Part shown: positions 53,872 through 55,956 of the stretch, piece by piece | How positions within the stretch are numbered: the first letter of the stretch is position 1 | How the letters are laid out: each line of letters begins with the position of its first letter | From: Aphanothece saxicola GSE-SYN-MK-01-06B | GTDB taxonomy: Bacteria; Cyanobacteriota; Cyanobacteriia; PCC-6307; Cyanobiaceae | Length of the DNA: 64,000 nt | Assembly: GCA_019359745.1 (NCBI GenBank) | Contig: JAHHGT010000008.1 | Coordinates: 1 to 64,000 of the forward strand | Reading direction: 5' to 3' | Notes under the pieces: model-generated | Told to the model about the DNA's origin: nothing | Seen by the model: only the letters and a program-made list of their open reading frames with translations | Databases searched by the model: none | Program-made: the position numbers and the translations under genes

Positions 53872-54660
53872 ATGAGCGACCCGAGCACCGATCCGCCCGG
53901 CGGGCAGCGCGGACCTGACAACCAACCCGGGCTCCCAGGTGAGCCACCGCTGGAGCCCCCAGCCGGGGTGGTGGGGCCGCCGCCGGAACTACCGAGCCTG
54001 GGGCCCTTGCATCTGAGCCTTTCAGCCGATGGCCTGCTGTTGCTTGGCATGGCCGCCTGGCTGCTCTGGCGCGCCTTCCTGCGCGACACCGTCATGGCCC
54101 GCATCGGCACCCTGCTTGGCACCCAGCAGGACAGCCGTTACATGGCCGACCTCCTGGCCCAGGTGGGGGTGCTCACCGGCTCCAGCAGGGTGGCGCTCGG
54201 CAGCTTCTACAGCCCTGGGCTGACCAGCTACGGCTATGCCTTTTCTCGGGTGACGATCGTCAGCTCCTACGTCTCGTTGGGACGGCTGCCGCTGGCGCTG
54301 GAGTCGAAAGACCTGCCGATCGAGAGGATCCGCCAGGACCTGGAGGTCCTGATCGCCCATGGCGCCGACAGCTGGCACCTTGTGCGGCTCAGCAGCCTGC
54401 TGCCGGTGCCCTGCCAGGACTACCTGCAGCGCAACGGCATCACCTTCCTCTACGGGCGCCTGATCCTGCTGGAAGGCACCCCGATCGGCATCCTCAACAT
54501 CCATTTCGACACGCCGCTGGCGGCCACAGATGTGCCGGAGGCACTCCCCCACGGCGAGCTGCTGGAGGCGATCTACCGGGAGCTGAGCCGGCTGGTGCGG
54601 GGCAGGATGCTGCGCCCGTCGATCTGGCGGCGCCTGTTCAGCTTCTGGGCGGGGCGCTGA
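53872..54660 (+). CDS. Hypothetical membrane-anchored protein
   Basis: Pro-rich N-terminus, LLLLGMAAWLLWRAFL hydrophobic segment, 262 aa. Confidence 0.55.
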   Translation: MSDPSTDPPGGQRGPDNQPGLPGEPPLEPPAGVVGPPPELPSLGPLHLSLSADGLLLLGMAAWLLWRAFLRDTVMARIGTLLGTQQDSRYMADLLAQVGVLTGSSRVALGSFYSPGLTSYGYAFSRVTIVSSYVSLGRLPLALESKDLPIERIRQDLEVLIAHGADSWHLVRLSSLLPVPCQDYLQRNGITFLYGRLILLEGTPIGILNIHFDTPLAATDVPEALPHGELLEAIYRELSRLVRGRMLRPSIWRRLFSFWAGR

Positions 54661-55234
54661 GCGTCAGGGCGCCGGATTGCACCAGCAGCCACAGCCGCCT
54701 TGCCTGCTGCTGCCGCCGCTCCAAGTGGGGCACACCGGGGCGGAAGTACCCCTGGCCCTTGGCGGCGGAGCCGGTCCAGTAGGCCGCTGCCGCCTCCGCA
54801 TCCATCCCCGCTGGCCGCTGCTCGAACACCCGCGACCAGCCGATCAGCGATCCTTCCGGCGGATCGTGCAGGCCGGCGTACTCCTCCGCGAAGTAGCGCT
54901 GCTGCCAGCCGCTGCTGTTGGGATCGATGCGCAGTGCGATCGCCTGCTGCCGGGCCCGCTCGTAGGCCACCCGGCGCGGCCCTGTGTACTGCATCGCACC
55001 GCGGCCCCTGCCGCTGCCGGCCTCCGTCACATCCAGCTGCTCGAGATCGGGCTGGCCGGTCTCCACGATCACGCAGGCCAGGAAGCCGCAGGCCTCCGCG
55101 GCACTGAGCGGGGCGATCTTCCAGGCGCTGGCCTTGGTGACCGCAGAGCTGGTGAGGAACTGGAGCCAGTGCTGCAGGTTGCTGAGGCCGGACTCCTGCT
55201 CAGGCCCTGGCCCCGGACCTGGCCCCGCCGCTAC
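54638..55234 (-). CDS. Putative lytic (tail-lysozyme-like) domain with no start codon of its own; -1 frame continuation of 55231-55956
   Basis: SGLSNLQHWLQFLTSSAVTKASAW...GFLACVIVETGQPDLEQLDVTEAGSGRGRGAMQYTG...; no in-frame ATG/GTG/TTG before the domain. Confidence 0.6.
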   Translation of the reverse strand, partial: VAAGPGPGPGPEQESGLSNLQHWLQFLTSSAVTKASAWKIAPLSAAEACGFLACVIVETGQPDLEQLDVTEAGSGRGRGAMQYTGPRRVAYERARQQAIALRIDPNSSGWQQRYFAEEYAGLHDPPEGSLIGWSRVFEQRPAGMDAEAAAAYWTGSAAKGQGYFRPGVPHLERRQQQARRLWLLVQSGALTLSAPPRS

Positions 55235-55956
55235 TTTTTTTCCTGGAACACCCCCACATAGACGGTGCCCTGCTCGTACAGCGGCAGGATCCGCTCGCGC
55301 AGCACCACGTTGTGGACCCGCAGGCAGCCAAGGGTGGGCAGCAGCGTCTGCCGCGGCTCCCAGGCACCGGGCCAGCCGCAGCCGGTGCCGCCGCCATGGA
55401 GCATGATCCCGGCCCGGCCGAGCTTCTGCTCCTGGCCCTCCAGCTCGACCATGTCGTAGCTGTACCAGCCATAGGCCATCAGGGTGGCGTCCCTCGGCGG
55501 GTTGGGGTTCTTCTCCCAGTCCCGATAGACCGTCCCCAGCTTGTAGAGCCCCGGCGGGGTGTCGGTGCCGGTGTGACGCCACTCGGTGTCGGTGCCCTGG
55601 CCCCGGGCCAGGGACGGTTCCCGCCACAGGAACTTGCCGGTGTGGTCGTAGGCCTCCATGTCCTGGTCACGGTCGTTGACCAGTAGGTAGGAATCGCCCG
55701 CTTTCACCGGTGCCGGGATCAACGGCCCGGCCAGGCCGGCCTCCTCGCTGCCGCGGGGATCGAGCGGCGGGAGTGCAGAGCTCACCGGCTGCGCGGGCTT
55801 CTCGCTGAAAGCGACAGCCCAGGGCGCCTCCTCGCGCAGGATCGCCTCTCCCCCCTTCAGCTGGCTGATGGCCTGGTGCAGCAGCAGCACGCCCCGCGCT
55901 TGTTGTTCTTGAGCCCTGAAGTGGAGGAAGCGGTCGAGGAACCGCTGGGGCGACAT
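55231..55956 (-). CDS. L,D-transpeptidase (YkuD)-like protein
   Basis: GIMLHGGGTGCGWPG...LLPTLGCLRVHNVVLRERILPLY matches HG...GC.R catalytic pattern. Confidence 0.7.
   Translation of the reverse strand: MSPQRFLDRFLHFRAQEQQARGVLLLHQAISQLKGGEAILREEAPWAVAFSEKPAQPVSSALPPLDPRGSEEAGLAGPLIPAPVKAGDSYLLVNDRDQDMEAYDHTGKFLWREPSLARGQGTDTEWRHTGTDTPPGLYKLGTVYRDWEKNPNPPRDATLMAYGWYSYDMVELEGQEQKLGRAGIMLHGGGTGCGWPGAWEPRQTLLPTLGCLRVHNVVLRERILPLYEQGTVYVGVFQEKK
55234..55240 (-). promoter_or_regulatory. Candidate -1 ribosomal frameshift slippery heptamer A-AAA-AAG immediately before TAG
   Basis: Minus strand CAG GAA AAA AAG TAG; a -1 slip reads GTA GCG GCG GGG into the 54638 frame. Confidence 0.7.

What the first reader, a model, noticed from the sequence alone, without database searches (positions are those of the whole stretch)
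54638..55956. Probable -1 programmed frameshift joining an L,D-transpeptidase-like and a lysozyme-like domain
The YkuD-like ORF ends ...CAG GAA AAA AAG TAG, which contains the canonical A-AAA-AAG slippery heptamer immediately before the stop. A -1 slip continues as V-A-A-G-P-G-P-G-P-G-P-E-Q-E-S-G into a 198-aa lytic-like domain. That domain has no in-frame ATG/GTG/TTG at or near its beginning, so it appears translatable only by recoding (or transcriptional slippage on A7). The Pro/Gly linker fits a two-domain fusion, giving a short and a long lysis enzyme from one gene.
Basis: partly seen in the sequence, partly recalled or inferred. Interest (0 to 1): 0.85.

Follow-up and report, generated by a model that had tools for sequence, protein, structure and literature searches.

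The report
Frameshift-joined two-part phage lysis enzyme
A prophage-borne cell-wall enzyme gene in a freshwater cyanobacterium ends in a classic 'slippery' A AAA AAG, and a second wall-cutting enzyme follows one reading frame back with no start codon of its own, so ribosomes probably slip to make a joined two-part lysis enzyme, although most relatives also have a start codon at the same spot that would let the second part be made separately.

Summary
On the minus strand a 241-aa YkuD ORF (55956-55231) ends GAA AAA AAG TAG. The -1 frame runs straight on into a 198-aa Phage_lysozyme2 (PF18013) domain whose first in-frame ATG/GTG/TTG lies 54 codons in, inside the fold. It is not an assembly error: 13 distinct lysozyme-linked junctions from separate genomes and viral contigs carry exactly GAA AAA AAG, and none has the two domains in one frame there. 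GAA and AAA are the only codon-invariant columns in the YkuD gene that use codons with a share below 20%. Both domains are under purifying selection, and the genome has only tRNA-Lys(UUU), as needed for dnaX-type slippage.

In 9 of 13 relatives the stop is TGA, so the same bases read GTG|A: a start/stop overlap with an AGGA Shine-Dalgarno motif. An outgroup (L269) uses TGATG with its own ATG and has no heptamer. Coupled translation is therefore a real alternative for the family, but not for the window, where GTG has become GTA. Frameshifting is the best explanation here (about 0.6). It is unproven: no convincing stimulatory RNA structure was found and there is no protein evidence.

The parts
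55231..55956 (-). YkuD (L,D-transpeptidase-fold) ORF, 241 aa, zero frame; motifs MLHGGG and TLGCLRVHN present
   Evidence: PF03734 89-217; homologues
55234..55240 (-). slippery heptamer A_AAA_AAG (in zero frame GA[A AAA AAG])
   Evidence: sequence; conserved in 13/13 lysozyme-linked relatives that end QEKK
55231..55233 (-). zero-frame stop TAG directly after the heptamer (TGA, i.e. GTG in the -1 frame, in most relatives)
55251..55255 (-). GGGGG (in GTGGGGGTG), a possible Shine-Dalgarno-like stimulator 10 nt 5' of the heptamer; the GGG codon is invariant in heptamer relatives
   Evidence: sequence; function inferred, and 5 of 10 non-heptamer relatives also have GGG
55241..55244 (-). AGGA, a possible Shine-Dalgarno motif for the GTG start in TGA-type relatives (in the window the GTG is GTA)
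   Evidence: sequence; inferred
54638..55234 (-). -1-frame extension: 18-aa Pro/Gly-rich linker plus Phage_lysozyme2 domain, 198 codons, no start codon before codon index 54
55181..55234 (-). Pro/Gly-rich linker (VAAGPGPGPGPEQESGLS), mostly predicted disordered

Best explanation
The locus encodes a two-module phage lysis enzyme read in two frames. Most ribosomes stop at TAG and make the YkuD module alone. A fraction slip back one base on A_AAA_AAG, where a single tRNA-Lys(UUU) re-pairs in the -1 frame, and continue through a flexible Pro/Gly linker into a phi29-gp13-type lysozyme module. Shown: heptamer and frames, conservation, purifying selection on both modules, single tRNA-Lys(UUU), absence of a usable start in the window. 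Inferred: that slippage occurs at a useful rate, that the fusion is the lytic product, and the enzymatic roles (peptide or cross-link chemistry by YkuD, glycan cleavage by the lysozyme). In TGA-type relatives a GTG start at the same place may additionally yield free lysozyme.
For: (1) Heptamer plus stop plus open -1 frame are exact. (2) 13/13 distinct QEKK junctions with an intact lysozyme have GAA AAA AAG, with the following zero-frame codon varying (TAG 3, TGA 9, TGT 1), and never a single-frame version. Relatives that never had the lysozyme, including host paralogues, show 0 heptamers. (3) In 11 lysozyme-linked genes, 102 invariant degenerate residues include 34 codon-invariant columns; the only two using codons below 20% share are GAA (11%) and AAA (15%) of the heptamer. 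Coupling alone would be served as well by GAG AAG AAG, which gives AGGAG and preferred codons. (4) Two lineages without GTG (window/G038 and Cyanobium ATX 6A2) keep the domain under purifying selection: dN/dS 0.26 window-G038 (YkuD 0.23), 0.24 window-ATX (also 44). On the lysozyme tree the GTG/GTA state needs at least two changes (my parsimony reading). (5) One tRNA-Lys gene, anticodon UUU, among 39 tRNAs; A_AAA_AAG is among the strongest E. coli heptamers when stimulated (PMC4066793). (6) A 12-20-aa linker is present in all heptamer junctions and absent where the lysozyme has its own ATG (L269, SynAce01). (7) Single-frame cyanophage proteins join lysozyme2, GH24 or glucosaminidase to YkuD.
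Against: Most relatives have a GTG start with an AGGA motif at the junction. L269 shows an ATG-started version without heptamer. Metagenomic pairs ending EKP seem to have lysozyme with CTGA and no heptamer (DNA not seen). 9 of 11 relatives that lost or truncated the lysozyme still keep the heptamer. G038 has another GTG 11 codons further in. No downstream structure beyond G+C expectation in the window (z near 0). Stimulator-free frameshifting at such heptamers is low in E. coli (PMC4066793). The rare-codon set was collected with a heptamer-like pattern, so the less biased counts are those. No expression data.
Confidence: 0.6

Rival explanations
1. Overlapping, translationally coupled genes: ribosomes terminating YkuD reinitiate at the NTGA codon (GTG, ATG or CTG) and make a separate lysozyme. 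The A-run is only the spacer after AGGA. In the window a very weak start (GTA or another near-cognate codon) is used.
For: GTGA in 9 of 13 junctions, GTGATG in L044 and L047, TGATG with ATG in L269. NTGA overlaps are the usual coupling geometry (PMC6728339, PMC10666635). In L010, where the heptamer is mutated, the GTG-led tail is in frame with the downstream ORF. Gene callers annotate standalone 188-204-aa lysozymes.
Against: Window, G038 and ATX 6A2 have GTA, not a known efficient start. L267 lost the overlapping stop (TGT) yet keeps the heptamer. Invariance of the rare GAA AAA codons and the linker are unexplained.
Confidence: 0.2
2. The lysozyme frame in the window is silent: the lineage recently lost its start codon and the domain is on its way out, as in G040:C50 (truncated) and the relatives in which it is deleted.
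For: Repeated loss of the domain: about ten relatives have an in-frame deletion and L006 is truncated. G038 keeps a GTG at codon index 11 that is GAG in the window.
Against: Window-G038 domain dN/dS 0.26 with no frame damage. Cyanobium ATX 6A2 (L057) independently lacks GTG and is intact.
Confidence: 0.12
3. Transcriptional slippage: RNA polymerase adds an A in the A7 run, giving an in-frame mRNA (A8).
For: A run of seven A is present; adding one A gives the same fusion sequence.
Against: Runs of seven are short for bacterial slippage (general knowledge; usually nine or more). No intact relative has a different run length; all keep exactly the X_XXY_YYZ phase.
Confidence: 0.05
4. Sequencing or assembly error in a homopolymer; the real gene is one frame.
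For: Homopolymer indels are a common error class.
Against: The same A7 phase is found in 13 divergent loci including single-contig genomes such as G253 and G215.
Confidence: 0.01

Closest known systems
E. coli dnaX -1 programmed frameshift (A_AAA_AAG)
   Same: same heptamer and phase; single tRNA-Lys(UUU); G-rich element 10 nt upstream
   Different: stop lies directly after the heptamer; the shift adds a second enzyme domain rather than shortening the product; no convincing 3' stem-loop in the window
IS3/IS1-type transposase frameshifts (A_AAA_AAG / A_AAA_AAC)
   Same: -1 slip fuses two ORFs to make the active protein
   Different: not a transposase; product is a cell-wall hydrolase; no pseudoknot shown
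Single-frame bimodular cyanophage endolysins (e.g. Synechococcus phage S-CBS4 gp063, Glucosaminidase-YkuD; GH24-YkuD and lysozyme2-YkuD metagenomic proteins)
   Same: same YkuD family joined to a glycan-cleaving domain
   Different: one frame, glycosidase first and YkuD last; here YkuD first, lysozyme second, in two frames
phi29 gp13 tail lysozyme domain (PDB 3csq/3csr; PF18013)
   Same: fold of the second module (best Foldseek match, prob 0.96/0.85, TM about 0.47)
   Different: E-values weak (0.3-0.95); gp13 is a tail protein with a peptidase partner
MS2 lysis gene and stop/start (ATGA/GTGA) coupled gene pairs
   Same: downstream lysis gene in another frame, translation tied to an upstream stop; TGA-type relatives have the NTGA geometry
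   Different: the window has no start codon at the overlap

Membership tests
-1 programmed ribosomal frameshift site | X_XXY_YYZ heptamer in zero-frame phase with long open -1 frame | tested here: met
-1 programmed ribosomal frameshift site | heptamer and frame relation conserved among divergent homologues | tested here: met
   13/13 QEKK-type lysozyme-linked junctions; L269 lacks it but has its own ATG
-1 programmed ribosomal frameshift site | downstream stem-loop or pseudoknot at 5-9 nt | tested here: inconclusive
   mean z about -0.8 to -1.2 over 12 relatives at 40-60 nt, but window about 0, and the control group without the domain is equally structured
-1 programmed ribosomal frameshift site | upstream Shine-Dalgarno-like element 10-14 nt away | tested here: inconclusive
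   GGGGG 10 nt upstream, GGG codon invariant in heptamer relatives, but GGG in 5 of 10 controls
-1 programmed ribosomal frameshift site | host decodes AAA/AAG with only tRNA-Lys(UUU) (favours A_AAA_AAG slippage) | tested here: met
-1 programmed ribosomal frameshift site | fusion protein detected | not testable with these tools
   needs reporter or mass spectrometry
coupled overlapping gene pair (NTGA) | start codon overlapping the upstream stop | tested here: not met
   window reads GTAG; met in 9 of 13 relatives
YkuD (PF03734) | catalytic His and S/T-x-G-C-x-R motif, profile over cut-off | tested here: met
   MLHGGG and TLGCLRVHN; Pfam 23.8 bits vs cut-off 23.4
Phage_lysozyme2 (PF18013) | profile match over cut-off and conserved acidic residue | tested here: met
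   32 bits vs 28.2; E59 nearly invariant; Foldseek phi29 gp13
phage endolysin | lytic activity, holin-dependent release | not testable with these tools
   a small hydrophobic ORF follows in TGA-type relatives but matches no holin family

The most novel reading that the evidence does not exclude
One junction works in two ways across the family: A_AAA_AAG slippage makes a YkuD-lysozyme fusion while the overlapping NTGA start makes free lysozyme, so three lysis proteins come from two ORFs. Lineages such as the window have dropped the start and rely on frameshifting alone, possibly the first tailed-phage endolysin known to be built by -1 frameshifting.
Probability: 0.35. Interest if true: 0.68.

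Novelty: new variant of a known kind. Interest (0 to 1): 0.55.

Why it matters
Programmed frameshifting in tailed phages is known mainly from tail and capsid genes. Searches of the held open-access literature found no endolysin made this way (titles and abstracts read, library incomplete). If real, the slip rate would set the ratio of a one-domain to a two-domain lysis enzyme, and gene callers would miss or truncate the second domain, as they do here (annotated starts such as METASKGR or MIVETG). The GTG/GTA natural variants give a ready-made comparison of recoding and reinitiation at one site.

Tried and rejected
Assembly error: rejected by relatives. Single-frame homologue at this junction: none found; single-frame fusions exist only in the opposite order. 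Downstream RNA structure: tested at 40-80 nt against dinucleotide shuffles in 33 loci; suggestive in some relatives, absent in the window, not better than controls. A DNA scan for EKP-ending relatives returned no YkuD locus. The IMG/VR contig 3300035003_000005 is identical to the window over 23 kb, so it is not counted as an independent strain. L101 matches the DNA pattern in an unrelated AT-rich coding frame. Fusion structure not predictable here because the tool needs an unshifted translation.

Full report
Observation. The minus strand carries a YkuD ORF, 55956..55231, ending CAG GAA AAA AAG TAG. The heptamer A_AAA_AAG is at 55240..55234 and the stop at 55233..55231. In the -1 frame, AAA AAA GTA GCG... 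is open for 198 codons to 54638 and encodes VAAGPGPGPGPEQESGLS followed by a Phage_lysozyme2 domain. The first ATG/GTG/TTG in that frame is a GTG at codon index 54, inside the fold: in the AlphaFold model residues 1-15 form no regular structure, helix 16-28 is mostly confident and helix 46-60 carries the ETG site (model of moderate quality, pLDDT 80). The best structural match is the phi29 gp13 lysozyme.

Relatives. YkuD and lysozyme queries over relatives, the genus, 401 genomes of the family, genome contigs and viral contigs gave 13 distinct junctions with an intact lysozyme in the -1 frame after ...QEKK, and all are GAA AAA AAG. The zero-frame codon after it is TAG in the window, G038 and Cyanobium ATX 6A2, TGA in nine, and TGT (no stop; zero frame runs on for about 130 codons) in L267. 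About ten further relatives have the lysozyme deleted in frame, leaving a short -1 tail, and L006 is truncated; nine of these eleven keep the heptamer. YkuD genes with no trace of the lysozyme, including the host paralogue at C1:77375-77941, end QEA, QER, QEP, QET, QEK or similar and never carry the heptamer.

Where the stop is TGA the -1 frame begins GTG, so the pair overlaps as GTGA with AGGA six bases upstream: a normal arrangement for coupled translation (PMC6728339, PMC10666635). L269 (genome G217) has GAG GCC TGATG with the lysozyme starting at its own ATG, no heptamer and no linker. Several metagenomic relatives end EKP, where the heptamer is impossible, and one -1-frame translation (P0057) implies GAA AAG CNC TGA, i.e. 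CTGA. In L010 the heptamer is mutated and the GTG-led tail runs into the next gene. The family therefore probably began as an overlapping gene pair (inference).

Why frameshifting is still preferred in the window. GTG is replaced by GTA here, in G038 and in ATX 6A2, and on the lysozyme tree this needs at least two changes (parsimony reading). Yet the domain stays under purifying selection: dN/dS 0.26 between window and G038 with dS 0.28, close to 0.23 for YkuD. In 11 lysozyme-linked YkuD genes, of 34 codon-invariant columns only two use codons with less than 20% share: GAA and AAA of the heptamer (that set was gathered with a heptamer-like pattern, so the less biased count is). A coupling-only junction would be served at least as well by GAG AAG AAG. 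All heptamer junctions have a 12-20-residue linker, Pro/Gly-rich in most, which the ATG-started lysozymes lack. The genome has a single tRNA-Lys, UUU, the condition for efficient slippage at A_AAA_AAG in E. coli (established knowledge of dnaX; PMC4066793 ranks the motif among the most efficient when stimulated). Related cyanophage proteins fuse YkuD to lysozyme2, GH24 or glucosaminidase in one frame, so a joined product makes sense.

What is missing. Stimulators are unproven. A GGGGG lies 10 nt upstream, as the Shine-Dalgarno-like element does in dnaX, but it is not specific to heptamer relatives; the 3' sequence is G+C-rich but in the window no more structured than shuffles. There is no expression evidence. 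The distinction between fusion and separate lysozyme in TGA-type relatives cannot be settled here.

Setting. The window lies in a Cyanobium-like genome (3.25 Mb, 11 contigs; kinship from record titles) and carries phage head and tail genes (terminase, scaffold, SU10/GP7-type major capsid protein, tail fibre) with defence genes between them. In TGA-type relatives a small hydrophobic ORF follows the lysozyme; it could be a holin but matches no family.

Noticed in passing
window 37076-46639: DUF499 ATPase, DUF1156 methyltransferase and PLD helicase in a row, a candidate defence system related to Hma/DISARM-like sets in PADLOC
   Followed up: partly
window 643-11117: Druantia-like set: a DruF-like protein, a 338-aa protein and a 2133-aa DruE-like helicase
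   Followed up: partly
window 24950-27994 (-): 1014-aa protein with an N-terminal region matching PADLOC candidate PDC-S33
   Followed up: no
L267 (genome G253): zero-frame stop after the heptamer is changed to TGT, so the unshifted YkuD would carry about 130 extra residues
   Followed up: partly
L010 2226-2500: lysozyme deleted, heptamer mutated, and the leftover GTG-led tail is fused in frame to the downstream small hydrophobic ORF
   Followed up: partly
L008, L009, L012, L029, L045, L046, L048, L050, L094: in-frame deletion of the lysozyme leaving its first few and last few codons; recurrent or ancestral loss not resolved
   Followed up: no
P0170 and P0062 (metagenomic proteins): single-frame lysozyme2-YkuD fusions, domain order opposite to the window
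   Followed up: yes
genome G000 C1:77375-77941: host chromosomal paralogue of the YkuD gene (553-codon open frame), found across the genus
   Followed up: no
L085 (Cyanophage S-2L lysozyme): shares the first 63 residues of the YkuD protein in front of a GH24 lysozyme: a mobile N-terminal module in cyanophage endolysins
   Followed up: no
window 52861-53925 (-): protein joining a TerB-like domain to a Mo-nitrogenase C-terminal domain (PF06967), just downstream of the lysozyme frame
   Followed up: no
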